Source: a virus. From it: a DNA stretch of 21,417 nucleotides. The translations under genes were made by a program, and so were the position numbers. The first letter of the stretch is position 1. The number at the start of each line of letters is the position of its first letter. Under the pieces are notes generated by a model. That model saw only the letters and a list, made by a program, of their open reading frames with translations. It made no database searches and was not told the DNA's origin. Location of the stretch: positions 1 through 21,417 of the IMG/VR virus record IMGVR_UViG_3300037993_000067; one strand, given 5' to 3'. Shown one piece after another: positions 6,217 to 21,417 of this stretch.

Positions 6217-6927
6217 ATGCCCACCATCAATTACAGCGCTTCGTGGGTTGACGTTGCAAATGACGCTCTGGGTATTCTGGGCCAACCCTTTATTCAGACC
6301 TTCGGCGACACGTCGGCGCAGGCCCTCGCGGCTAATGCCCACTTCGCGAACACGATCGCGGGCGTCCTTCAATCCCACGACTGGCGCTGTCTCGCCGTCA
6401 TGGTCCAATGCCAACTGTGCGCAAATACTCCGGCCTATAAGTGGATGTTCGCCTACCAGCTCCCGAGTGACTTCTTCCGACTCCTCGACCTCGACGTGGG
6501 CGGCGACGATTACGAGATAATGAGCGGGCTTTCGGTCGGAGTCCCCGACTCCCTCGTGGTGATGTCCAACGGCTACGGCGACACGTACAACGCCCTTGGG
6601 GTTCAGACGACAACCGCGCAAATCATCAACCTGGTTTATATCCAGATGCCGCAGGACGCGCAGAGCCTTCCGTACGTGATGAAGAACCTTATCGCGGCAG
6701 AGCTTGCCGTCGCCATGGCGCCTCGACTGGTGGACAACGAGCAGACGATTTCCCGCGCATCGGCCAACGCGCAGCAAGCATGGGCCGATGCCCTGTCCTT
6801 CGATTCGCGGCTCCGCAAGGACCCGAAACCCATGTCGCCCTCCAAAAACGGAGTCTGGAACGACGAGCACCGGCACGGGCTCCCGAACGGGTACAACCCG
6901 GCCAGCTCCTTGGGGATGATAAATTAA
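6217..6927 (+). CDS. Tail tubular protein A / gatekeeper (T7 gp11-like)
   Basis: 236 residues, ATG with GGGGAGG at 6204-6210. The N-terminal VDVANDALGILGQPFIQTFGD, the following helix with ALAANAHFANTIAGVLQSHDW, and a middle KWMFAYQLPSDFFRLLDLD are typical landmarks for gatekeeper proteins of the T7 gp11 / P22 gp4 type. In these, 'LG...I.s..d....a......y....r..Ll..h.W' is followed by '.y.yxLPxDxlrl'. Such proteins form the ring under the portal that keeps DNA in the head and seats the nozzle. Length is slightly above T7 gp11 (about 196). The stop overlaps the nozzle start (TAATG), matching the usual A-then-B order. Confidence 0.8.
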   Translation: MPTINYSASWVDVANDALGILGQPFIQTFGDTSAQALAANAHFANTIAGVLQSHDWRCLAVMVQCQLCANTPAYKWMFAYQLPSDFFRLLDLDVGGDDYEIMSGLSVGVPDSLVVMSNGYGDTYNALGVQTTTAQIINLVYIQMPQDAQSLPYVMKNLIAAELAVAMAPRLVDNEQTISRASANAQQAWADALSFDSRLRKDPKPMSPSKNGVWNDEHRHGLPNGYNPASSLGMIN

Positions 6928-9161
6928 TGCCCGATTTCTTCACGCTCTGCCGGAACAACTTCTCGGCGGGCGAACTGTCCCCGCTCATGCAGGCAGCGGT
7001 CGACAAGCCCTTCTATCCGCAGGGCTGCCAGATCCTCGAGAACATGATCCCGCAGCGAGGAGGGTCCGTCAGGCGAAGGCCGGGGACGTACTACGCCGGA
7101 GCCGCGGCTGGCGGGACGACGGCCTCGAGGCTAATTCGCTGGAAAACCTCGGACGGGTCCAACTGGGTCCTCGAGCTCTCGAACCTCTATGCTTCGGTAT
7201 GGAATGTCTCGACGCACACCAAGATCAGCGGGGTGGCGACTCCCTACGCTCAAGCCGACCTGTTCAACCTCTCGTTCTGCGACGTGAAGTCTTCTCTGTC
7301 GGATGTCTCGGGGACCTCGGGTCATGGGTTATGGATCGCCCACCAGAGTTACCCTCCCGCCTACTTCCAGTTCGACGGGACGACGCTGCACTACGTGGTT
7401 CCGACGCCGAATACGACTTTCCCCTATGGCGGATACACTCCTACTCCTGCGAGCCCGTACACGACCTTCGTCTCAGGGGACGCGAACGCGAATGCCTGGA
7501 ATAACTTCTCCGGGGCAGGGAATTATCCCGCCGTGGTGTCCTTCATCGGCGGCCGGCTCACCTTCTTCTCGACCAAGAACAACGGGAACCTCATGCTCAT
7601 GTCCCGGTCCCCGGACTATATCAACGGGAACGACCGGCTTTTCGACCTCACGACCCTGGCGAGCGGAGCCTCCGCGCAGTCTCCCGATAACGCGATCGCC
7701 AACTTCTATTCGGCCCTCGCGCCGACTCCAGTCCGGTGGGTCGTCTCGCACCTGCGGATGATCGTCGGGACGGACCGGAATATGTGGGCCGACAACGGGC
7801 AGGCCTGCAGCGCGGGAGTTTTCGGCATCCAGACAGCAGGATTCAGCGGGGCGAGCTCCGTTCCCGGCAAGGGCATCGAGAACTACGTCGTCTTCGTCGG
7901 TCACTCAGGGCGCACGCTTTCGAAGATGTACTATCACTTCATGTACGGGTTCTACATCGACGAAGAGCTCACGAAGATGTCGGACCATATCCTCAATTCG
8001 GGCGTCGTCGAGATGGATATCCAGACCTACCCCTTCCCGATCGTCTGGCTCGTGCGGGCGGACGGGGTACTCGTATCCTGCACGCTCGATCTCCAGGGCG
8101 AGCTCCAAGGCGAGGGGAAAGTCGTCGGATGGGCTCGCCATCCGATGTCGGGGAACGTGGCGGCCGTCTGCTGTCCTCAGACCAACGCGGCGGCGGCAGG
8201 AGTCAATACACCATCGAGCGCGGGAAATGACGAGGTGTGGCTATGCGTCAACCGAGGAACCGCACTCGCGCCGGCCTTCGATATCGAATACATGATCTTC
8301 CACGACCTGCAGAACGTCGCGCTTTCCGACCTGCACTACGTGGACTGCGGATCCTACTTCTCGGCCCTGAACGGCCCCACTCCCACAGTCGCGCAGCTCG
8401 CCAACCAAACAGTGGACGCGGTCGGTGACGGGGCGGTACTTCCGCGCGTGACGCTGAATTCGTCAGGTCAATACACGTACAACCGATCAATAAAGCAGCT
8501 CCATATCGGGCTTCCCATGCCCTCAGTCCTCTGCCCGACTCGCCCCGATGTCCCTGGCAGACAGACGGGGAGCACTCAAGGCAAGACCAAGCGGATCACG
8601 AGGGCCGTAGTGCGCGTCTACAATTCGACCCTCGGCAAGATCGGCCGGACGCTTAATCCGTCCGGGGCCGGTTCTTTGCAGCGGGTTATCATTCCCTTTG
8701 TCGGTGGAGTGCCGGGATCTAATGCCTATGAAGCCATCGCGCTTTCGGGTGGTATCCCAGCCTCGGGGACGCAGTACCCGATCACGTTCCCCTATCAGGC
8801 GGTCTCGGACATCGTGGTCACGATTTCGAAGCAGGACTCGACCGATCCCGAGTTCAACCACGTCTATACGCTCATTCCAGGGACGGACTACTTCGTCACG
8901 AATCCAAGCATCAAAGGGACGTTGACCGTCATGGCGAACGTCTCGACCTGGGCCGCGAGCCTCGGGTACACTCCGGATACACTCAACATTTACTACCGGC
9001 CGACTCTGGCGGGGATGGCCGATCCGCTCGTTTCGGGGGATTTCGAGCTGGACCTGGGGGGCTACACGGACACGGACGGGAATATCTACATCGTCCAGGA
9101 CGACCCCATGCCCTTAAACGTGGTCGCGATCATGACTAGGATCGCCCTCGAGGAACCATGA
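6927..9161 (+). CDS. Tail nozzle protein (tail tubular protein B-like)
   Basis: 744 residues. The start is the ATG at 6927 in a TAATG overlap; the frame stays open upstream but only as a shadow of the previous gene. The N-terminus NNFSAGELSPLMQAAVDK, QGCQILENMIPQRGGSVRRRPGT is the hallmark opening of podovirus nozzle/tail proteins, where 'GELSP...R.D...y..g...l.N....p.Gg..rRpGt' is conserved. It forms the tube below the gatekeeper through which DNA and ejection proteins leave. Residues ~614-692 hold a beta-rich stretch (GTQYPITFPYQ, IPGTDYFVTNP, LNIYYRP) that resembles the N-terminal domain of the tail fibre at 20455. This suggests that part of the nozzle carries a fibre-type adaptor fold. 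The stop overlaps the next start (ATGA). Confidence 0.83.
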   Translation: MPDFFTLCRNNFSAGELSPLMQAAVDKPFYPQGCQILENMIPQRGGSVRRRPGTYYAGAAAGGTTASRLIRWKTSDGSNWVLELSNLYASVWNVSTHTKISGVATPYAQADLFNLSFCDVKSSLSDVSGTSGHGLWIAHQSYPPAYFQFDGTTLHYVVPTPNTTFPYGGYTPTPASPYTTFVSGDANANAWNNFSGAGNYPAVVSFIGGRLTFFSTKNNGNLMLMSRSPDYINGNDRLFDLTTLASGASAQSPDNAIANFYSALAPTPVRWVVSHLRMIVGTDRNMWADNGQACSAGVFGIQTAGFSGASSVPGKGIENYVVFVGHSGRTLSKMYYHFMYGFYIDEELTKMSDHILNSGVVEMDIQTYPFPIVWLVRADGVLVSCTLDLQGELQGEGKVVGWARHPMSGNVAAVCCPQTNAAAAGVNTPSSAGNDEVWLCVNRGTALAPAFDIEYMIFHDLQNVALSDLHYVDCGSYFSALNGPTPTVAQLANQTVDAVGDGAVLPRVTLNSSGQYTYNRSIKQLHIGLPMPSVLCPTRPDVPGRQTGSTQGKTKRITRAVVRVYNSTLGKIGRTLNPSGAGSLQRVIIPFVGGVPGSNAYEAIALSGGIPASGTQYPITFPYQAVSDIVVTISKQDSTDPEFNHVYTLIPGTDYFVTNPSIKGTLTVMANVSTWAASLGYTPDTLNIYYRPTLAGMADPLVSGDFELDLGGYTDTDGNIYIVQDDPMPLNVVAIMTRIALEEP

Positions 9162-10202: not shown

Positions 10203-12683
10203 ATGGACGTACCCCAGGTAAACGACCGGCCAGTCCTTCAGGCCTTCCAGGCTGAACGCGAGGCGCAAAGCGGGATGTTCGTCCCCCAGGAGATCGAGGC
10301 GCAGAACCAAGCCGCCTACGCTCAGGACCAAAATAGGGCCTTCGCCTCGGCGGCTGGCCTCGTCAAGGGAATCGGGGAAATGTGGGCACAGGGGCAGATG
10401 GAGGCGGCGAAGGTCGCCTCTTACACCGCTTCGCAGAAGCTCAACGACCAGTGGATGTCCGACGCGGCTTCGGGGAAGATTCAGCCCTCCGTCGCCGATG
10501 ATGGGACAGTCACGGTCAAGCCTACAGATGAATGGACAGCGATGCGGGACAACTTCCTCTCGCAGGCGAAGGACAAGTACCAGGCTCCCGGAGCTCAGAG
10601 CTTCCTTCAATCCTCCATCCTCGAGAACGCGAACCGGGTCCAGACGGACGGTCTCCGCGCGGTCTACGACAAGTACCAGAAGGACTACTACGCGAACGCC
10701 TCCCTCGGCCTCCAGATGACGACGGACGCCCTCGCCAAGGGAAACAGCTTCGAGCCTGAGCTCGACGGCCAGGGCCGGACGGTGGACTACAAGAAGCTCG
10801 ACCTCTCGACCGAGACGGACATCATTCGACAGAAAGTCATGGATATAAAAGGCCTGGACGGCCCCGCTCAGAACATCCTCATTCAGCAGCAGAAGAACAC
10901 CGTATTCGCGGGCATGGTCGACAAGGAAGCCCAGCGGCTCGCGGCGATCGATCCGGCCCAGGCAAAGAGCTTCATCGAGGCCGCGAACGACAAGTACCGG
11001 CCCGACGACGTAACGAAACTGGACGACCAGGCCCTGAAGCAGCTCCTCGACAAGTCCAGCGTCATCGAGCAGGCGACGAAAGAGAAGATCACCAACGACG
11101 CACAGACACAGATCGAGAAAATTCAGAAGGGGGCGAACTCTGGATGGGCCGACGCCTTCACAAAGATTCAGGACCAGAACTCGAAACAATACCCTGGTTA
11201 CAAGGATGAGGACGACAAGATCGCGGTAAAATTCGCGCAGGCGGCTGGCGCGACCTGGTTGAACGTCATAGGCCAGGACCTCACAAACAAGAACGAGGAC
11301 GCATTAAAAGAGGACATGGTCAACCTTAAGAATGACTTCGCCCATGATTTCAACGTCAATAACGCAGCATTCGCCGATCAGAAAAAATCTATCCAAGCGT
11401 TCGCAGATGCGCAATTAGGCCGGGACGAGGAGCAGGACGCGAAGGAACAGAAGGCGCGAGAGACCGCAGAGGCGAAGGGTTGGTACGATATTGTTGACGC
11501 TAATTCTCGCAATTATGAAGGGCTGCAAAATATCCGGGATAAGATCACTCATTCGAGCGATCCTAATCTCACAAGCGAATCGAAGCAGGCCCTCATCAAG
11601 ACAATCGACGAGTACAGCAAGGAACCAAGCCCCGATCTTGCCAAGAATATATCTTTCCTTAAAGAGCAAGTCGCGCAGGGAGCAATTCCTCAAGGAGCTT
11701 TAGAAAAATACCTCATACGTGAATCCGGGAGAGCAACCAATTTCAATAACCCAGTTTACATGAAACAGCTTTCCGATGGTTTAGATGAATGGAATAAAGG
11801 ACTTGAAGGGCAATTTAAGGCAAACTCGGAGATACTCAAGCAAGCGGCCTTGGATTTCGTTGGAGTGAAGGATATCAAGGAACTCAAGGATCCGGCTAAA
11901 CTCGCGGCCTATGCTCGGTGTCTCGATGATCTGACAAAAGCATCCATCGCTAATTTCAACGCCAGTAAGACAAACGACCCGGAAGCGTCTCAAATGATCG
12001 CTATAGATACGACGGCGAAGATGGTTTCTCGCGGGTTCTCGAATCCGAAGAATCCGGAAGCTCCTCCGATGGCTGGTAGCGAAGATGCAGCGCTGGCGAA
12101 ATTTGTACAGGGTGAAAAGGCAGGCTCGACCACGGTTGACGCCTCCGGGAATGAATCCAGCCTCAACAGTGGGGAATTGAAGAACGGTATAGCGCTTTCC
12201 GAGAAGCGAATCAAGACGGCGATCCCTGGGGTCGAGATTATTGGCAACTCCTTGGAAAAAGGAGATCAGTATGGACTCACGAATACAGGAGAGCGTATTT
12301 TTAAGGCTCAGGATGGGAGCCAGTACAAGGTCAGCTCGGATGATGGAAAGACTACCACTGTAATGGCGAGGTATAACCAAAGCGAGACATCGGGCGGAAA
12401 GACTACGCGAGTATTAGGACCGTGGGTCAAGGTCACTGAGAAGACCCAGGCACAGAAAGACCATGCCGCTGCCACGGTGATCGCCACCGCGACCGAAAAC
12501 CAGGACATAAATCGAATCTTGACCAAGGAGCAGAACGACAGGAAACAAACGGAGTACCAGGCAAACCAAGAAGTTGCCTCAAATGTCATGAGTGACCCGA
12601 GCAAGTTCGACGCGGCCTATAAGGGATGGGATGGGGAAGGCAAGGTAGCCGATTATCTGATGAAGTGGGAAAAGGCTCATTAA
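10203..12683 (+). CDS. Putative internal virion / ejection protein (826 aa)
   Basis: Starts one base after the previous stop, with a weak ribosome site (GGTGG), so probably coupled. The product is almost entirely charged and helical, rich in Lys, Asp, Gln and Ala, with no signal peptide or clear membrane helix. It contains long coiled-coil-like stretches (for example KDKYQAPGAQSFLQSSILEN and EEQDAKEQKARETAEAKG) and a more beta-like part near residues 650-760 (KRIKTAIPGVEIIGNSLEKG onward). Place and size match the middle core protein of podoviruses (T7 gp15 analogue), which would form the inner core and, after ejection, part of the trans-envelope channel. No lysozyme or transglycosylase motif is visible. 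Base composition drops clearly from about 11,290 to 12,600 (one line at 11,701 is ~38% GC against ~63% at 10,681), suggesting a mosaic join. Confidence 0.65.
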   Translation: MDVPQVNDRPVLQAFQAEREAQSGMFVPQEIEAQNQAAYAQDQNRAFASAAGLVKGIGEMWAQGQMEAAKVASYTASQKLNDQWMSDAASGKIQPSVADDGTVTVKPTDEWTAMRDNFLSQAKDKYQAPGAQSFLQSSILENANRVQTDGLRAVYDKYQKDYYANASLGLQMTTDALAKGNSFEPELDGQGRTVDYKKLDLSTETDIIRQKVMDIKGLDGPAQNILIQQQKNTVFAGMVDKEAQRLAAIDPAQAKSFIEAANDKYRPDDVTKLDDQALKQLLDKSSVIEQATKEKITNDAQTQIEKIQKGANSGWADAFTKIQDQNSKQYPGYKDEDDKIAVKFAQAAGATWLNVIGQDLTNKNEDALKEDMVNLKNDFAHDFNVNNAAFADQKKSIQAFADAQLGRDEEQDAKEQKARETAEAKGWYDIVDANSRNYEGLQNIRDKITHSSDPNLTSESKQALIKTIDEYSKEPSPDLAKNISFLKEQVAQGAIPQGALEKYLIRESGRATNFNNPVYMKQLSDGLDEWNKGLEGQFKANSEILKQAALDFVGVKDIKELKDPAKLAAYARCLDDLTKASIANFNASKTNDPEASQMIAIDTTAKMVSRGFSNPKNPEAPPMAGSEDAALAKFVQGEKAGSTTVDASGNESSLNSGELKNGIALSEKRIKTAIPGVEIIGNSLEKGDQYGLTNTGERIFKAQDGSQYKVSSDDGKTTTVMARYNQSETSGGKTTRVLGPWVKVTEKTQAQKDHAAATVIATATENQDINRILTKEQNDRKQTEYQANQEVASNVMSDPSKFDAAYKGWDGEGKVADYLMKWEKAH

Positions 12684-15600
12684 TGGACCTCTGGGACCAG
12701 AGCACGACGGCCGACGACGCGGGTAAGCCCGCCGCGATGGCGCAACTCACCAGCGAGCCCACGGGGGAAAATAAACCAGCCCTCCCCGCAGCGCCGGGCC
12801 CGCCCGAGCAAAAGCCCGAGGCTCCTCCCAAGACAGCCGCACCGACCGCGCCCACACCACAGGCACCTCAAGGCGGGGCCGAGGAACAAGTCAGTAAAAT
12901 CCTCGCTCCTATAGCGAAACAAGTCTCGGACATTGGGCTCGTCCCTGTATCCTCTGATGAGTACGACTCGATTATGCGAGCGGCTAAAAACTCTCCCGAT
13001 CCGCAGACTACGATTGCCAAGGCTTCCCAGGCGATGATGTACCAGAAGCTCCTTGGGATACCCGCCGACAAGGCGATGGATTATCTCCCGGCTCTCAATA
13101 AAGCCTTCGTCGGCGACCCGATGCCTTCCCAGGAGAACTTCGGGAACACGGTTTCTAAGGCTCTGGATAACGGGTCGTACTTCCTCCAGGCGGGTAGGAT
13201 CGGCGGACTCCTCGCGAACGATCCCCATAACCCCGAACTCAGAGCAGCGGCCGACTACGTCAATAAGAAGCTCGAGGAGACCGCTCCCTACGCTCAGAAG
13301 AACATATTCACCCAGGCCCTCCAGATGGCGCCATTCATGATCGACGGCCTCGCGACCTCGGCACTCGGAGGCGTCGGTGGTATCGCCTCGATGGTTACGG
13401 CCGTGGCGAACGTCGCGCAGATGAGCGCAACCATGCGTGGGGCCGACTTCCTCCGAATCCAACGGGACACTCAGGCGGCTCTCGTCAAGAAAGGGGTCGA
13501 TCCGGAGGAAGCCTACCAGAAGGCGACGGATGTCGCCGGGCCGATCTCCCAGACCTCGGGCATCATCGAAGGAAGCCTGGGCGAGCTCCTCGGCGGATTT
13601 CCGGCCCTCCGGGGCCTCATGGGCAAGGAAGCGGCCCCGATCACGTCCAAGATCATCGACGCGATTATGCAGGACGGCGTCACGTCCAGGGTAGGCCAGA
13701 AGCTCGCTTTACAGGGCGGTTTACATTACGCAGGTTCAGCGCTCGAGTCCGGCGCCAATATGGCGGCGTTTGAACTCACGCAGCGGCTCTCGGATAAGAC
13801 GGCGGCCGTGCTCTCGGACTCTGGGGTTCCACAGCCCACGGCCGCGGCGATCGCCAAGGATGTAGGGGGAGCCTTTGGAAACGGTATCCTCATCGGCCTC
13901 ATTACGGGCGTACCAGCCCTTGCGAAGGCTGAGATAGGCGCCGTGCGAGCGGGAAGCGCCGAGGCGGCAACACGGCTCACGGAAGCGAAGAACCTCGCCA
14001 CCTTGGCGAAGACGTTCGACCAGGACGGATTCAAAGCGGCGGTAGACCGACTCCCGGACCTCGTCTCTTTCAAAGGAGTGGATCCAAAAGACAAAGCCGC
14101 GCAGCTCGACCAGATATGGAAAACTTCCCACGCATCCGAGGCGCCAGAAGCCACAGGCAAGAGCGGAGAGGCCCCGGAGGGTAAAACTACCACCCCGGCC
14201 GCTGGCGAGGCTCCTGAGCCCGCCACGGGCTCAACGGCGCCTCTCGCTCGAGACGAAGGCGGGAAACTGTACGCGAACGATGAGCCTGTTGTCCTTCGGC
14301 GTGATGGATCATCCATGATCATGGAGGATCGGATAGGCGATCCGACCAGTCAAAAGGCCTATTCCCTGCACCAGTTTACGGTCGACGACGAGGCCAAGAC
14401 TGTCACGGTCGACTCGATGCGCTTCAAGCAGGGGACCGGGGACGCAGAGCGCGAGGAGATGGCCCGGCAGTACGTGGACCGGCTCCAGCAGCGATACCCC
14501 GGATTCGATATCAAATGGGAGCCCTCGGACCCGAAGCTGGCCGCCATCCGGGACAAGATCATCGCAGACAATCCCCAGGGCCTCGAGAAGGGACTGAACT
14601 ACTATCCGGACAAGGAAGCGGCCTCGACTCCCTTCAAGGCCGACGAGTTTAGGCAGAAGGCCCAGGCGGCTTTCGGGCTCAAGGACAACGAGGCGGACGC
14701 GGCGCTATCCCTCGTCCACGCCTTCGCGAAGGGGGAAGGGACCGACGCCGAGACCTGGCTACGGACGCACCTTGACCCGAGGATGATCGCCAATGCGGGC
14801 GAAAAGCAGATCGCCCAGGGGAACAAAGCCGGAACGTCTTTCACGGATTCCGAGGGGAAACCCATCGCGCCCGAGAAGGTCTCCCAAGTACAGGGCCATG
14901 CGAAGGCGCTCATCATCGCTACCAAGGCCGGAGACTTTTCTTCCATCGCCCATGAGCTCTTTCACGTCGCCCAGCTCACCACGAAAGACACAGAGATACG
15001 CAAGGCCATTTCTGACTATTTTGGTATACCTTACGATAAGCTCGGGCGAGACGCCATGGAGCACCTGGCCGACAACTTTGAGAGGTACTTAACCTCCGGC
15101 CGGGCTGACGCTCATCTCAAGGGCGCGTTCGGGAAGATCGCCGATATCATGGCCCGGTACGTCTCCGAGTTCGTCCGGCGCCTGAAGGGGAACCCAAAGC
15201 TCGAGGCCATCTTCGACAAGATGCTCGGCTCGGATACTCCCTTCGGAGAAGCCCTACGAAAGGCCGACGATCAGATCAAGGGTCGAGAGGTCAAGGAAGT
15301 CGAGCCGGGAAGCATGGAGGACAAGTACAACAAGATCAAAGGTACCCAGGGAGGGCGAGTTCTCGATGTCGATATCGCGCGTGAATTGGTCCCCGGCTAC
15401 AAGCCCGAGGAGGCCGGAAAGGTTCACGAAGAAGCCAGCGCCATAATAAAGCAGCGATACGCGGAACTTCTCCAGGGACCCGTCGCCAAGGGGAAAGAGC
15501 CTTTTGTCCTTTTCACCGCAGGCGGCAGCGGGGCGGGAAAGACAACTGCGATCAGAACGACCCTTGACGGACTCAGGGGAAAAGCCGATATTATATACGA

Positions 15601-18600
15601 AGGGATGATGAGCAAGGTTGAGTCTTCTGTAAAGAAGATCGACCAAGCATTGGAGAGTGGACGTGATGTTAATATTGCCTATGTTCATCGGAGTCCTGTT
15701 GACGCCTGGCATTCTGTGTTGGACCGCGCCGAAGAAACAGGCCGAACGGTTCCCCTCGATGCTCACGCCGAAGCACATAGTAACGTTCAGACCACGATTG
15801 AGAAGCTCCAAGGTATTTACAAAGACACTCCACAAGTCATTTTCCACGCAATCGATAACAACCAGGGACCAGGAAAAGCGAGGGAAGTTCCTTTCGAAAC
15901 TCTCCCCAAGATTGAGACCCAAAATCTCAAGGAGCAACTACATGAAGGACTTACCGAAAGATACCGAGCCGGCAGTATCTCTGAAAAGACGTACCGCGGA
16001 TCAGTACCCACCGCCCCTAATGAGCCCAGAACGCCGGAAGGAAATAACGGAGCAACTTGGGAAGGAGCTGGCGGACAACCTGAATCGCAACGTCCTGAAG
16101 TCTCGCAAGTAGAGGAACCCGTGCGCGGGGTTCCCGCGCGCGAGGGCGAGAAGATTGCCAAAGAAGCGACGACGGTCCAGCACGAGCTCGCCAATGAGCT
16201 CGGGGCCCTGAACGGCGCGCTGAAGCTCGGGAAGGGCGATCGGGCGAAAATCCTCGAGCAGTACGGATTCAAGGCCGGCGACGAGCCGGCGATCCGCGCG
16301 AGGGTCGCGGAGCTCGAGGGGAAGGTCCAGGCCTGGGACAACTGGTCGACCGACCCCGCGAAGTACCAGGAGCTCCGTCGACGGGCAGGGCTCCCCTTCA
16401 AGCAGGACGTTATCGACGCCGCTTCCCAGACCGAGGCGGAGACAGGCCGGCCCGAGGAGCCCATGCTCTTCCAGCACGACGACGACCTCGAGGAAGCCCG
16501 GCAGTACAAGAGCCCCGAGGAATGGATGAAGGCCACGGGCGCAAAGGACGAGGACGCCGACTTCTACAAAAAGACATGGGAGGAAGCCACCCAGAAGCCC
16601 CTTGTCTCAAGCGCTCAGGCCCGCGTAGACTTCGCCAACGAGGTCAAAGCCGACAATCACGCCCTCGGGCACGAGCTCCTCAAGGCGATCGGCGAGAACT
16701 TGCTGAACGGGAAGATCGCAGACGCGCACGCTAAGGGCGGCCGTGAGCTGTCCGTTATTGACGCCTACGCCCTCGATAAGGTATCGGGCCGGCAGATCAC
16801 CGAAGCGAAGTGGATGGTCATTGACGCATGGATCGAGAAGAACCCTGACAAGTACCGCACGCTCACCGCGAAGCTCCTTGGCCGCGACGATATAACTCGG
16901 CAGATGGGCGCGGAGGGCGACGGGACGGCGCCTCGGGAGCCCGTCAGGATCAAAGGCTCCAACTCCGACCAGGACGCCCAAGTCGCGGGAGCGGCACTTC
17001 AACGCCTTGTCGACAAGCTCGAGCCAGAAGCAGCGGATAAACTCTCCTCGGAGAAGTGGACCAAGGCCTCGGCTCAGGCTTATGCCGAGTCTACTCGGAA
17101 GGATATCGCCCGGCTGCAAGCCAAGGTCGACAAGTCTCAGGCAGAGGTCCAGCAGCTCAAGGACCTCATGAAGGCGCAGCGGGCGGGGCAGCTTGCCAGC
17201 GAGCAACGGACGGCCTACGAGAAGACTGTCAGGCGGAACCCCGGCCCGACGATCGACTACGCCCACGCGCAGATCGTCAGGGCGGTGATGGACTTCCTGG
17301 ACCCCATCGACCAGGGCAAGCGGGTCATGACGGACGAGAAAAACGCCGTCTTCGCGAAGTACGACGAACTCGCGAAGCAGTTCTTGACCCCGGAGCAGAT
17401 CGATAAGATCAAGACAGCACCTCTTAATGAGTGGAGCACGAAGGACCTGAAGGACCTCGCGGGCAGCCTCCGGGAACTTCGGCAGGCCGGCAGGGACGAA
17501 TACTTCGCCAAGGCCTCGGAGCGGAAGGCTCGCCTCGATGATCAGGCGATGGAGGTTCGGCAGACTCTCGTCGCGAACCATCCGGCAGACGGACGGGCGC
17601 CGGTAGGCTCGAAGGAATACCAGGACGCCAACGGCGGGAAGCTCGGGCGAATGCTTCGGAGCTTCGACCTTCCACAGACGAACATCCTCCGAGAAGCGAG
17701 GACGATAGACGGGAAAGAAGACGGGCCCGTCCAGCGGATCGTGATGAAGGAAGTAGAGGCGGACCGGGCCTCGGATACAATGTCTCGCGCGAGGAAGGCG
17801 GCGCTTGCTGAGGCTTTGAAGGGACAGGACCTCGACGTTAAGCACTTCTACGACAAGAAGGGCGAGGTGCAGATCATGGGTAAAACCTTCAACCGGGCGA
17901 CACTCATGAGCCTGTACGTCGGGATGCAGGACTCCTTCTCCCGCGGGCATATCGTCTACGGGAATTTCATGTCCCACGTAGACCGTGAAGCGATGGCCGG
18001 GCATCCTGAGCTCGAGGAAGCCGGGGACCGGATAACTTCGGCGATCAGGCAGGCGACGGACACACTTACGGCGAAGGAAAAAGCTGTCGCGGACGCCTAC
18101 CTCGCCAACATGAACGAGCACCGGGGCCGGTTCTTTAACGCGGAAGTGGAACTTGACAACAAGAGTCCTGAGAATGTTCAGGCCTATTTCCCCTGTTATC
18201 TCAACGAGCCAGAGGACCCGAGGGGATTCAAGGCCGATATTATGGGGCTGTTCGGTCTCAAGAAGCAGACGAATAAGGGCGCGACGATCAACCGTATCGA
18301 CATCGCACCGGAAAACCAGAAGTCTATCAACCTCGACTTCTTCAGCGTCTACGAGAAGGCCATTGAAAGCCAAGAGCGGTTCATTGCGATGGCACCTTTC
18401 CTCCGGGACTGGAACGCGGTGTTCGGCTCCTCGAATCGGTCAACCATAGTGCGGGAGGAAATCGGGAACCGGCTCGGCGCGGAGCACGTCCAGTACCTCG
18501 ACGACTGGGCTGGCTGCGTAGCCAACCCAAAAGCATGGGACCGGATACAGGACATGGAGAAGGGCATGAGCACGGCGGCGCGATACCTCCGCGGCGGCCT

Positions 18601-19591
18601 CACGACGGCATACTTGGGCTTCCGGTCGGCAATGGGAGTCCAGCACATCGCGACCTATTGGATGCCCTACATCCCCCACGCAGGCGGCGAGCTCCTTCAC
18701 CAGATGCTCGTCCACTTGAACCCTGTCACGGCGCTGAAAGATTGGGCGTGGATCAAGGAACAGAGCGCTGTCGTCAGGAACATCAAGCCGGGGATAGCGG
18801 TTCACGACCTCGCGAAGATGGACTTCGGAAACGCGGCCATGAACAAGATCCGTGACTTATCGATGCTGTTCGAGCAGGGAAGCCAGAACTACGCGGTCCT
18901 GAATGGCTGGAAGGCCATGTATGACAAGACCATCGCAGCGGGTCAAGCCGACCTTGGATCAGGGAAGATCACGGGAGATCAACTCCATATTCAGGCAGTG
19001 AACAAAGCCGACGAGATCACGCTAAAGGTCCAACCGACCTGGCAGCCCGAGTACATCGCTCCTGCCCTCCGATCTAAGAACGGGATGATGAAAATCATTA
19101 CGCAGTTCATGGAGCCGATGAACGTGGTGTACAACCAGTTGCGGCATGATGTACCCGATGCGATCGCGGACGGGCATCTTATGAAGGCTGCGGGGATAGT
19201 CACAAGCCTCATGGCGGTCGGTGCGGTCTATGGGCTCATCCGGGCGCCGCAAGAGGACGACGACGACGCGACTCAGAAGATGAAGGATGTTTTCGCGGGG
19301 ATAGCGAAAGAAGGGATAGACTCTATCCTCTTCGTCGGACCTATTCTCGATGGACTTGTCGACAGCGCAATCACGGGGCATACTCTATTTCAGCAGAAGA
19401 CGGAAGCCTTCCCTGCGGCGGACCAGATGATAAACGCGCTGCAGAAGATAGAGTCAGGGAATGGCGGCGGGGTGGCGCTCATGGAGGCCTTCGCTGTAGC
19501 TCTGGGGCTTCCGGTATCCGCGGTGAAGGACTACTACCGCGCGTTTGGCGGGGACCTTGGGGCATTGATAGGACGACCGGCTAAAAAGTAA
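12683..19591 (+). CDS. Giant polyvalent ejection protein: protease + zeta kinase
   Basis: 2302 residues; ATG at 12683 in a TAATG overlap. Layout by residue: 15-66 Pro/Ala-rich; 70-480 helical with Gly/Ala-rich hydrophobic parts; 483-525 acidic Pro linker; 530-645 mixed alpha/beta domain; 735-850 zincin-like metalloprotease (HELFH at 757-761, probable third ligand E793 in MEHLADNFERYL); 878-1106 zeta-toxin-like P-loop kinase (GGSGAGKTT at 947-955, YVHRSPVDAW, GRTVPLDAH, IDNNQGPGKA); 1107-1144 odd linker overlapping another ORF; 1145-1650 helical, coiled coil near 1472-1506; 1650-2302 C-terminal part like the LPD38-type domain of large phage polyvalent proteins, with a hydrophobic helix near 2168-2190. 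Position and size match the T7 gp16 slot, so it is probably ejected into the host. The protease could process virion or host proteins; the kinase could modify UDP-sugars or nucleotides. Domain names are from motifs, not searches. Confidence 0.75.
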   Translation: MDLWDQSTTADDAGKPAAMAQLTSEPTGENKPALPAAPGPPEQKPEAPPKTAAPTAPTPQAPQGGAEEQVSKILAPIAKQVSDIGLVPVSSDEYDSIMRAAKNSPDPQTTIAKASQAMMYQKLLGIPADKAMDYLPALNKAFVGDPMPSQENFGNTVSKALDNGSYFLQAGRIGGLLANDPHNPELRAAADYVNKKLEETAPYAQKNIFTQALQMAPFMIDGLATSALGGVGGIASMVTAVANVAQMSATMRGADFLRIQRDTQAALVKKGVDPEEAYQKATDVAGPISQTSGIIEGSLGELLGGFPALRGLMGKEAAPITSKIIDAIMQDGVTSRVGQKLALQGGLHYAGSALESGANMAAFELTQRLSDKTAAVLSDSGVPQPTAAAIAKDVGGAFGNGILIGLITGVPALAKAEIGAVRAGSAEAATRLTEAKNLATLAKTFDQDGFKAAVDRLPDLVSFKGVDPKDKAAQLDQIWKTSHASEAPEATGKSGEAPEGKTTTPAAGEAPEPATGSTAPLARDEGGKLYANDEPVVLRRDGSSMIMEDRIGDPTSQKAYSLHQFTVDDEAKTVTVDSMRFKQGTGDAEREEMARQYVDRLQQRYPGFDIKWEPSDPKLAAIRDKIIADNPQGLEKGLNYYPDKEAASTPFKADEFRQKAQAAFGLKDNEADAALSLVHAFAKGEGTDAETWLRTHLDPRMIANAGEKQIAQGNKAGTSFTDSEGKPIAPEKVSQVQGHAKALIIATKAGDFSSIAHELFHVAQLTTKDTEIRKAISDYFGIPYDKLGRDAMEHLADNFERYLTSGRADAHLKGAFGKIADIMARYVSEFVRRLKGNPKLEAIFDKMLGSDTPFGEALRKADDQIKGREVKEVEPGSMEDKYNKIKGTQGGRVLDVDIARELVPGYKPEEAGKVHEEASAIIKQRYAELLQGPVAKGKEPFVLFTAGGSGAGKTTAIRTTLDGLRGKADIIYEGMMSKVESSVKKIDQALESGRDVNIAYVHRSPVDAWHSVLDRAEETGRTVPLDAHAEAHSNVQTTIEKLQGIYKDTPQVIFHAIDNNQGPGKAREVPFETLPKIETQNLKEQLHEGLTERYRAGSISEKTYRGSVPTAPNEPRTPEGNNGATWEGAGGQPESQRPEVSQVEEPVRGVPAREGEKIAKEATTVQHELANELGALNGALKLGKGDRAKILEQYGFKAGDEPAIRARVAELEGKVQAWDNWSTDPAKYQELRRRAGLPFKQDVIDAASQTEAETGRPEEPMLFQHDDDLEEARQYKSPEEWMKATGAKDEDADFYKKTWEEATQKPLVSSAQARVDFANEVKADNHALGHELLKAIGENLLNGKIADAHAKGGRELSVIDAYALDKVSGRQITEAKWMVIDAWIEKNPDKYRTLTAKLLGRDDITRQMGAEGDGTAPREPVRIKGSNSDQDAQVAGAALQRLVDKLEPEAADKLSSEKWTKASAQAYAESTRKDIARLQAKVDKSQAEVQQLKDLMKAQRAGQLASEQRTAYEKTVRRNPGPTIDYAHAQIVRAVMDFLDPIDQGKRVMTDEKNAVFAKYDELAKQFLTPEQIDKIKTAPLNEWSTKDLKDLAGSLRELRQAGRDEYFAKASERKARLDDQAMEVRQTLVANHPADGRAPVGSKEYQDANGGKLGRMLRSFDLPQTNILREARTIDGKEDGPVQRIVMKEVEADRASDTMSRARKAALAEALKGQDLDVKHFYDKKGEVQIMGKTFNRATLMSLYVGMQDSFSRGHIVYGNFMSHVDREAMAGHPELEEAGDRITSAIRQATDTLTAKEKAVADAYLANMNEHRGRFFNAEVELDNKSPENVQAYFPCYLNEPEDPRGFKADIMGLFGLKKQTNKGATINRIDIAPENQKSINLDFFSVYEKAIESQERFIAMAPFLRDWNAVFGSSNRSTIVREEIGNRLGAEHVQYLDDWAGCVANPKAWDRIQDMEKGMSTAARYLRGGLTTAYLGFRSAMGVQHIATYWMPYIPHAGGELLHQMLVHLNPVTALKDWAWIKEQSAVVRNIKPGIAVHDLAKMDFGNAAMNKIRDLSMLFEQGSQNYAVLNGWKAMYDKTIAAGQADLGSGKITGDQLHIQAVNKADEITLKVQPTWQPEYIAPALRSKNGMMKIITQFMEPMNVVYNQLRHDVPDAIADGHLMKAAGIVTSLMAVGAVYGLIRAPQEDDDDATQKMKDVFAGIAKEGIDSILFVGPILDGLVDSAITGHTLFQQKTEAFPAADQMINALQKIESGNGGGVALMEAFAVALGLPVSAVKDYYRAFGGDLGALIGRPAKK
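15314..16000 (+). other. Captured zeta-toxin-like kinase segment
   Basis: Residues 878-1106 of the giant protein read like a complete stand-alone zeta-family kinase. They open with an internal Met and MEDKYNKIKGTQGGRVLDVD, continue with Walker A (K953), YVHR, GRTVP and DNNQG motifs, and end with AGSISEKTYRG. From about 15,590 to 15,960 the GC content is ~42-48% by line against >60% in flanks, and codon use is less GC3-biased. The position where I recall a catalytic Asp (YDG) carries Glu973 (YEG), so activity is uncertain. Acquisition from a bacterial or plasmid locus is inferred. Confidence 0.6.
15942..16112 (+). CDS. Overprinted 56-aa ORF in +1 frame
   Basis: ATG at 15942 with AAGGAG at 15929-15934 (7-base spacing) and TAG at 16110-16112, in the +1 frame inside the giant gene. 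The product starts MKDLPKDTEPAVSLKRR, continues with PPPLMSPERRKEI and ends in a well-formed amphipathic helix (TEQLGKELADNLNRN) and a basic tip. It looks more protein-like than the phage frame over the same bases, which from 16,001 reads as disordered Pro/Gly/Glu sequence. A hairpin follows 2 bases after the stop. My reading is a small partner gene, perhaps an antitoxin, that came with the zeta kinase. It may be a fossil or may still be translated. Family unknown. Confidence 0.5.
   Translation: MKDLPKDTEPAVSLKRRTADQYPPPLMSPERRKEITEQLGKELADNLNRNVLKSRK
16114..16134 (+). other. 7-bp hairpin right after overprinted ORF
   Basis: GGAACCC (16114-16120), 7-base loop, GGGTTCC (16128-16134), starting 2 bases after the TAG of the +1 frame ORF. 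No T-run follows (CGCGCG instead). It may be the remnant of a terminator from a captured cassette and marks the point where the sequence returns to strongly GC-rich phage composition. Confidence 0.45.
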
Positions 19592-20454: not shown

Positions 20455-21417
20455 ATGATTACCTCGGCGGTCGTCAAGAATAGTTGGGTTCTCACGCCCG
20501 GTAGCCCGCCGTCGATAGGGGCTCAGTACGCGATAACGATCCCGTACTGGTCAACCGGGGACCTGGTCGTCCAGCTCATCGATGCGGGGGGCACAAAGCA
20601 GACCCTCACGCTCGGGACGGACTACACCTTGACGACGCCCTCCGGGGTTCCTCCGCAGACCGAGGCCGGGGGGATTCTGACGGTACAGAGCAACTGGACG
20701 TACTCGCCCGCAGACTGGGCAACTCTCTCGGTCTACCGTGCGCAATCGGTCGTTCAGCAGACGAACTTCCGCAACGGCGATTCTTTCGACATGCCGACGC
20801 TGGAAACTGAATTCGACAAGCTCGTGGGCATGATCCAGGAGACCAACGCGGGGACCACGACAGGATCGGGGGGAAGCTACTTCCCGACCGGCAGCGCGGC
20901 GACCGTGCTACAAGGGCTCGCGGCGAGCCTTCTCGCGGGACAGATAGCCTTCGGGCTCCTGCCTTCCGGGACCTCTTCGCCGCTCGCGGTGACATGGCAG
21001 CAGCTCCTAGCAGGAACCCTTGGTACAAACATCAAGGGACTCATCGCGGCAGACCTTGGCTCCGGGTGGGTTTCACCGCTCGAGGCGGCGCTTACGTCAG
21101 GATGGGCGAGCGCGTTCGCGACGGCCTTCAATACGGCATGGTCCTCGATCATAGGTGCGGCTCCGGGGTCAGGATGGGCGGCGGCCCTCGCGGCGACGTT
21201 CATCCCGAGCCCTATCCCTCCTGTCGGCTTCGTCTATTTCCAAGGACCGAACGACGCGACTCCTGCTTCGATGTGGTCAACCGGGACCTGGACCGATGTA
21301 TCAAGCGAAGAAGCCAACATGACCCGAAGGGTGTACGGAAGCCTTGCGGGCGCATGGGTTTCAGGGACACCGGCAGTTCTTACGGTCGGCGTCTCGGGCG
21401 GCGTCCCGACGATCACC
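20455..21417 (+). CDS. Tail fibre, N-terminal part (open at window end)
   Basis: ATG at 20455, one base after the previous stop, with GAAGGA at 20443-20448 (6-base spacing); the frame stays open for 321 codons to the edge, so the gene is truncated by the window. Residues ~22-96 (GAQYAITIPYW, LGTDYTLTTP, ATLSVYRAQ) followed by TNFRNGDSFDMPTLETEFDK and LVGMIQE form the usual N-terminal attachment domain of podovirus fibres, comparable in layout to T7 gp17. An Ala/Trp-rich imperfect repeat (GSGWVSPLEAAL, TSGWASAFATAF, GSGWAAALAATF) spans ~201-260. Near residue 265, PPVGFVYFQGPNDATPASMW with GTWTDVSSEEANMTR resembles the phage tail-collar segment. The receptor-binding end is not in the window. 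Confidence 0.75.
   Translation, partial: MITSAVVKNSWVLTPGSPPSIGAQYAITIPYWSTGDLVVQLIDAGGTKQTLTLGTDYTLTTPSGVPPQTEAGGILTVQSNWTYSPADWATLSVYRAQSVVQQTNFRNGDSFDMPTLETEFDKLVGMIQETNAGTTTGSGGSYFPTGSAATVLQGLAASLLAGQIAFGLLPSGTSSPLAVTWQQLLAGTLGTNIKGLIAADLGSGWVSPLEAALTSGWASAFATAFNTAWSSIIGAAPGSGWAAALAATFIPSPIPPVGFVYFQGPNDATPASMWSTGTWTDVSSEEANMTRRVYGSLAGAWVSGTPAVLTVGVSGGVPTIT

What the first reader, a model, noticed from the sequence alone, without database searches (positions are those of the whole stretch)
15314..16134. A stand-alone zeta toxin cassette appears fused into the giant ejection protein
The segment reads like a whole zeta-family kinase with its own Met start and natural-looking end (YRG at ~16,000). 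It has lower GC than its flanks, is followed by an overlapping 56-codon ORF with a good ribosome site, and then a hairpin 2 bases after that ORF's stop. Together these look like a toxin gene, a partner gene and a terminator remnant absorbed into a 2302-residue phage protein. This would be a visible intermediate in how polyvalent phage proteins gain toxin domains.
Basis: partly seen in the sequence, partly recalled or inferred. Interest (0 to 1): 0.85.

Follow-up and report, generated by a model that had tools for sequence, protein, structure and literature searches.

The report
Toxin-kinase cassette with nested candidate antidote
Inside one giant protein that this phage probably injects into bacteria sits a cell-wall-poisoning kinase whose small partner gene, most likely its antidote, is written in a second reading frame over the same DNA; the same pair recurs in many other phages, both as neighbouring genes and nested inside other giant proteins.

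Summary
The giant ORF (12626-19591) carries a zeta kinase at 15314-16003. It belongs to the rewired gonococcal zeta_1 type, not the classical streptococcal type (PDB 6EPH, TM 0.79; catalytic D56/K115/R175/R181 all conserved). The overlapping 56-codon ORF2 (15942-16112, SD AAGGAG) is a real conserved gene. 92 of 94 related loci have an ORF at this place, always in the +1 frame. A profile made only from loci where zeta ends in a stop codon ranks the window's ORF2 fourth of 7,994 six-frame segments; the first nine are all ORF2s. ORF2 matches no known family.

In most relatives zeta is a separate gene, or the last domain of one, with ORF2 overlapping its end. In 28 divergent loci, the window included, zeta lies inside a larger protein and ORF2 is nested. 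Zeta+ORF2 sits at different places relative to the same domains, so it behaves as a cassette. The window's host protein belongs to the BPP-1 Bbp10 family, whose members carry other effectors, or zeta, in a cargo slot.

Best reading: a zeta_1/epsilon_1-type toxin plus overprinted antidote. The antidote role is inferred. The 'terminator remnant' and 'transitional intermediate' ideas are not supported.

The parts
12626..19591 (+). Giant polyvalent protein gene (2321 codons from the first ATG), Bbp10-family ejection-type protein
   Evidence: profile of BPP-1/SR18/Carin1/ctQRb9/L114/L120 giants matches residues 1880-2238 at i-E 6e-23, and the right piece alone at 2.4e-10 with a profile from three zeta-free members; lies after portal, capsid and tail genes
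14951..14965 (+). HExxH motif of the zincin-like metallopeptidase domain, just upstream of zeta
   Evidence: the helical tail after it aligns weakly with the BPP-1-type zincin (i-E 0.00095)
15314..16003 (+). Zeta kinase domain of the rewired gonococcal zeta_1 type
   Evidence: Pfam PF06414; profile hit to 6EPH 2.5e-19; model pLDDT 96, TM 0.79 to 6EPH against 0.46 to 1GVN
15371..15373 (+). Invariant Asp codon, equivalent of catalytic Asp56 of ng_zeta1
   Evidence: Alignments; role from PMC5923241
15521..15544 (+). P-loop GGSGAGKT (Lys equivalent to Lys115 of ng_zeta1)
15929..15934 (+). Shine-Dalgarno AAGGAG of ORF2
   Evidence: SD match of at least 5 nt at 78 of 91 ORF2 starts against 9 of 423 out-of-frame ATGs inside zeta genes
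15942..16112 (+). ORF2: nested +1-frame gene, 56 aa, candidate antidote of zeta
   Evidence: profile from non-fused loci, post-stop part only: E 0.0003 among 7,994 segments
16026..16106 (+). Predicted C-terminal helix of ORF2 (residues 29-55), with family motif LADNLN at 16068-16085
   Evidence: AlphaFold helix pLDDT about 95; motif in the nested +1 frame of 25 of 28 fused loci against 2 in the giant frame and 0 in +2
16114..16142 (+). GC-rich hairpin(s) after the ORF2 stop, no T-run; not a recognisable terminator
15536..16117 (+). Segment of low third-position GC in the giant frame (0.45 against 0.76)
18263..19339 (+). C-terminal region shared with the Bbp10 family

Best explanation
The segment is a two-gene poison/antidote cassette carried as cargo in a giant ejection protein. 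The zeta domain is an ATP-dependent UDP-sugar kinase of the rewired gonococcal zeta_1 type, which would drain cell-wall precursors. ORF2, read from its own ribosome site in the +1 frame over the end of zeta and the following linker, makes a 56-aa mostly extended peptide with one C-terminal helix. It most likely binds and silences the kinase in the cell where virions are made. The giant protein would then be packaged and injected, possibly with zincin processing, and the kinase acts in the new host, where no ORF2 is made yet. Shown here by computation: the kinase family, fold and catalytic residues; ORF2 as a conserved gene; the cassette behaviour; the Bbp10-family host protein. Inferred: expression, inhibition, packaging and injection.
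For: Kinase type: with the four catalytic residues of ng_zeta1 conserved (PMC5923241). ORF2 as a gene: ORF at the same place and always in +1 in 92 of 94 loci, against 6 of 94 in +2, and 38 of 39 further loci; profile tests; SD enrichment; motif counts by frame. In three independent fused pairs the ORF2 stretch loses the giant frame's third-position bias (17 of 65 differences at position 3, against 208 of 317 in zeta and 75 of 146 after ORF2; Fisher p 5e-9 and 9e-4). Antidote role by analogy: gonococcal order is zeta_1 then epsilon_1, a 186-bp gene (PMC2848598); ng_eps1 is unrelated to classical epsilon, binds as an extended stretch and its helices cover the ATP site. ORF2 has the same order, size and predicted shape. 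Cassette. No SD-preceded alternate-frame ORF of 35 codons or more over the PBECR1 or ART cargo of BPP-1 and SR18.
Against: No experiment. ORF2 shows no detectable sequence similarity to ng_eps1 or any known family. A two-chain structure could not be predicted here. Some fused loci have weak starts or a decayed motif (L029, L046, L057, L095). Substitution patterns show that the giant frame is relaxed over ORF2, but only one of three pairs shows the excess at ORF2 third positions expected from strong constraint on ORF2. In the stand-alone group checked the cassette lies near terminase genes, so virion delivery is not general.
Confidence: 0.72

Rival explanations
1. ORF2 is a real translated partner of the zeta domain but acts as a folding or packaging chaperone, or as a small virion component, rather than as an antidote.
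For: It stays with zeta in both free and virion-type contexts. Precedent: Arc1 is both predicted chaperone and antitoxin of the zeta-like AvrRxo1 (PMC4938570).
Against: The free-gene loci examined are near terminase genes, not structural genes, so a packaging role would not explain them; size, order and predicted shape match ng_eps1.
Confidence: 0.15
2. ORF2 inside the fused proteins is an unexpressed leftover from the time when zeta ended its gene; the frame stays open by chance in GC-rich DNA.
For: An open +1 frame alone is not significant in a single GC-rich locus (window shuffle P 0.18); some fused loci show decayed motifs or weak starts.
Against: Motif kept in 25 of 28 divergent fused loci, including GC 0.42 and 0.49 giants L114 and L120; strong SD in the window; profile recovery; giant-frame third-position bias lost exactly over ORF2.
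Confidence: 0.07
3. The +1 frame is reached by programmed frameshifting, giving an alternative short zeta product with a different C-terminus.
For: ORF2 always lies in the +1 frame and overlaps the zeta end.
Against: Most ORF2s have a start codon with an SD at a similar place; in L011 the start found even lies beyond the matched zeta end. No slippery site was searched for.
Confidence: 0.04
4. One reading: a complete bacterial toxin gene, partner and terminator recently absorbed, seen in transition.
For: Composition break in the window copy; the pair exists as overlapping genes elsewhere.
Against: Relatives are mostly phage genes, fused forms are widespread, the tree does not place free forms at the root, and there is no terminator.
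Confidence: 0.08

Closest known systems
Gonococcal zeta_1/epsilon_1 toxin-antitoxin (PDB 6EPG/6EPH/6EPI; PMC5923241)
   Same: Same rewired kinase topology (catalytic Asp block before the P-loop), same catalytic residues, toxin gene first, antidote of about 60 aa downstream with a mostly extended fold
   Different: Plasmid system with a C-terminal OB domain on the toxin; no sequence similarity found between epsilon_1 and ORF2; not part of a giant protein, and no nested antidote described
Streptococcal epsilon/zeta and PezAT
   Same: Zeta kinase superfamily
   Different: Different order of sequence blocks; three-helix-bundle antidote; structural match only TM 0.38-0.46
AvrRxo1:Arc1 (PMC4938570)
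   Same: Zeta-like toxin with a small antitoxin encoded downstream
   Different: Distant fold match (TM 0.50-0.53); Arc1 is a 98-aa three- to four-helix protein with its own motif; different biological setting
Polyvalent proteins of phages and conjugative elements (PMC5512222)
   Same: Giant injected multidomain proteins with zincin peptidase and interchangeable effectors; zeta-like kinase domains already listed there
   Different: That survey mentions zeta-like kinases once and overlapping genes not at all in its main text
Bordetella phage BPP-1 Bbp10 and Caulobacter phage SR18 gp040
   Same: Homologous giant protein in a structural gene cluster, zincin motif
   Different: No zeta; they carry PBECR1 or ART-PolyVal in the slot where L114/L120/L164 carry zeta+ORF2

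Membership tests
Rewired zeta_1-type UDP-sugar kinase | Catalytic Asp block located before the P-loop | tested here: met
   Colinear profile alignment to 6EPH 3-236/41-264; fold match TM 0.79
Rewired zeta_1-type UDP-sugar kinase | Catalytic D56, K115, R175, R181 | tested here: met
   Window residues D20, K76, R138, R144 of the segment; invariant in the 54-sequence alignment
Rewired zeta_1-type UDP-sugar kinase | Phosphorylates UDP-sugars at 4'-OH | not testable with these tools
   Needs enzymology
zeta_1/epsilon_1-type toxin-antitoxin pair | Small antidote gene directly downstream of the toxin | tested here: met
   gonococcal order
zeta_1/epsilon_1-type toxin-antitoxin pair | Antidote homologous in sequence to ng_eps1 | tested here: not met
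   ORF2 profile against PDB up to E=10 gave no 6EPx chain
zeta_1/epsilon_1-type toxin-antitoxin pair | Antidote relieves toxicity in trans | not testable with these tools
   Experiment needed
Canonical streptococcal epsilon/zeta | Upstream three-helix-bundle epsilon and P-loop-first order | tested here: not met
   Partner is downstream with one predicted helix; block order differs
Bbp10-type polyvalent ejection protein | Conserved C-terminal region and zincin HExxH | tested here: met
   (C-terminal strong; zincin region weak, i-E 0.00095)
Bbp10-type polyvalent ejection protein | Packaged in the virion and ejected | not testable with these tools
   Inferred from gene position after portal, capsid and tail genes
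Intrinsic terminator after ORF2 | GC-rich hairpin followed by T-run | tested here: not met

The most novel reading that the evidence does not exclude
Phages carry effector kinases inside giant injected proteins together with an antidote gene overprinted in the +1 frame across the effector's end and the following linker. The pair moves between cargo slots as one piece of DNA, so the giant protein spreads its own safety catch with its poison.
Probability: 0.65. Interest if true: 0.88.

Novelty: new variant of a known kind. Interest (0 to 1): 0.78.

Why it matters
Polyvalent phage proteins carry toxic effectors, and how the producing cell survives making them is an open question. A conserved nested gene that travels with one effector type gives a direct, testable answer for that type, adds a protein family not matched in Pfam, PHROGs or PDB, and shows annotation missing genes because they overlap larger ones. 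It also links injected phage kinases to the best-studied Gram-negative zeta system, so enzyme assays and structures already exist for comparison.

Tried and rejected

A canonical zeta with a segment loss: the Pfam match skips profile positions 40-93 because that block lies before the P-loop, as in ng_zeta1. I first took this for a new permutation; it is already published as topological rewiring.

Kinase inactivation in the window: the family's D/N at positions 96/98 read E/M here, but ng_zeta1 also has Glu at the first of these, and the four catalytic residues are intact.

Close sister phages of the window giant: scans with the right and left flanks found none; the portal found only L100, an 8.3-kb fragment too short to reach the giant gene.

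Flanking direct or inverted repeats marking an insertion: none convincing at the segment's ends.

Open-frame length as evidence: not significant on its own.

Nested genes over other cargo: none in BPP-1 or SR18.

Full report
What the window is. The record is a 21,417-base virus contig. It holds portal, capsid and tail genes of a podovirus-like phage, then the giant ORF 12626-19591. No close relative of the giant turned up in viral contigs. A profile of the giant proteins of BPP-1, SR18, Carin1, ctQRb9, L114 and L120 matches its residues 1880-2238 at i-E 6e-23, and a profile from three zeta-free members still matches at 2.4e-10. It is therefore a Bbp10-family protein. Ejection is inferred from gene order and from the polyvalent-protein literature (PMC5512222).

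The kinase. Pfam calls zeta toxin. Across 54 relatives the order of blocks is Asp-containing block, P-loop, then the arginine motifs. The profile finds gonococcal zeta_1 end to end at 2.5e-19. The AlphaFold model has mean pLDDT 96, and its best solved matches are the same protein at TM 0.79-0.80, against 0.38-0.46 for classical zeta and PezT. The published catalytic residues Asp56, Lys115, Arg175 and Arg181 correspond to D20, K76, R138 and R144, all invariant in the alignment. A UDP-sugar kinase activity is the natural expectation; it was not tested.

ORF2 is a gene. In 94 related loci a +1-frame ORF covers the zeta end in 92, a +2-frame ORF in 6; many of these loci are near copies, so this is not 94 independent cases. 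A second scan gave 38 of 39 more. The peptides share a C-terminal helix motif around L-N. A profile from 41 non-fused ORF2s ranks the window ORF2 first of 3,378 six-frame segments (E 3.9e-7). With only the part beyond the zeta stop, which cannot be an echo of zeta coding, the window is again first of 3,378 (E 0.003). A larger version of that profile, tried against 7,994 segments of 31 fused loci, put ORF2s in the first nine ranks, the window fourth (E 0.0003). Starts carry SD matches of at least 5 nt in 78 of 91 cases against 9 of 423 background ATGs; the best start was chosen per locus, so this comparison is somewhat favourable. In 28 fused loci the motif is in the +1 frame in 25, in the giant frame in 2, in +2 in none; the motif was written after seeing the data.

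Selection. In three independent close pairs of fused loci, differences fall at giant-frame third positions in 208 of 317 cases within zeta, 75 of 146 after ORF2, and only 17 of 65 over ORF2. So over ORF2 the giant frame is not the main constrained frame. Only one pair shows the excess at ORF2 third positions that strong ORF2 constraint would give.

Composition in the window. Over 15942-16112 the ORF2 frame has codon-position GC 0.60/0.39/0.65, like the phage's genes, and the giant frame 0.66/0.60/0.39, which is unlike them. The low-GC3 segment is 15536-16117.

Cassette behaviour. The ddrB-ParB-containing domain lies after zeta in L042/L101, L072/L155, L095, L102, L105, L107 and L008, but before it in L053 and L045. 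The zincin motif lies after zeta in L114, L120 and L164, but before it in the window. In the Bbp10 family the slot before the zincin holds PBECR1 in BPP-1, ART-PolyVal in SR18 and zeta in L120. ORF2 accompanies zeta in these positions; the other two cargoes have no comparable nested ORF. In the tree, terminal forms group together, internal forms are paraphyletic, and the main stand-alone clade is nested among internal forms, with a midpoint root only. Fusion and fission are therefore both possible.

Mechanism. The gonococcal system has zeta_1 first and a 186-bp epsilon_1 gene after it (PMC2848598). Epsilon_1 lies extended on the kinase and its helices cover the ATP site. ORF2 has the same order and size, and is predicted as an extended region plus one helix. 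No sequence similarity between the two was found. I therefore infer that ORF2 is the antidote and that overprinting guarantees its co-inheritance. Confidence: ORF2 is a protein-coding gene, about 0.93; antidote role, about 0.75; injected effector, about 0.7.

Limits. Nothing here was tested at the bench. Near copies inflate locus counts. The two viral-contig scans with deeper alignments kept only the best 80 of 176 and of 274 relatives, so rarer architectures may be missed. The literature search covers open-licence papers only; no paper describing this nested partner was found, which is not proof that none exists.

Noticed in passing
L178 (BPP-1 giant), L179 (SR18 giant), L114, L120, L164: A cargo slot just before the zincin domain of Bbp10-family giants holds PBECR1, ART-PolyVal or zeta+ORF2 in different phages.
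   Followed up: partly
Phage P1 records AF234172 and AF234173: P1 annotation lists iddB under the matched stretch of ddrB, apparently another nested ORF inside a polyvalent protein; not compared with ORF2.
   Followed up: no
Window 6780-9161 and 20455-21417: The 793-aa tail protein and the last, incomplete ORF share a segment (phmmer E about 1e-5).
   Followed up: no
Window 10203-12683: 826-aa protein just upstream of the giant gene, no PHROG match.
   Followed up: no
L003 3626-3829 (Novosphingobium plasmid zeta gene): A plasmid-borne zeta that looks like the rewired type also has a +1-frame ORF of 67 codons nested near its end; no clear ORF2 match, GC-rich, may be chance.
   Followed up: partly
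L171 and similar stand-alone loci: Stand-alone zeta+ORF2 lies between a predicted transcription regulator and the terminase small subunit gene, so the free form is not in the virion gene block.
   Followed up: partly
L029, L036, L046: ORF2 kept open in a fused context but with the L-N motif lost, a possible decaying or diverged partner.
   Followed up: no
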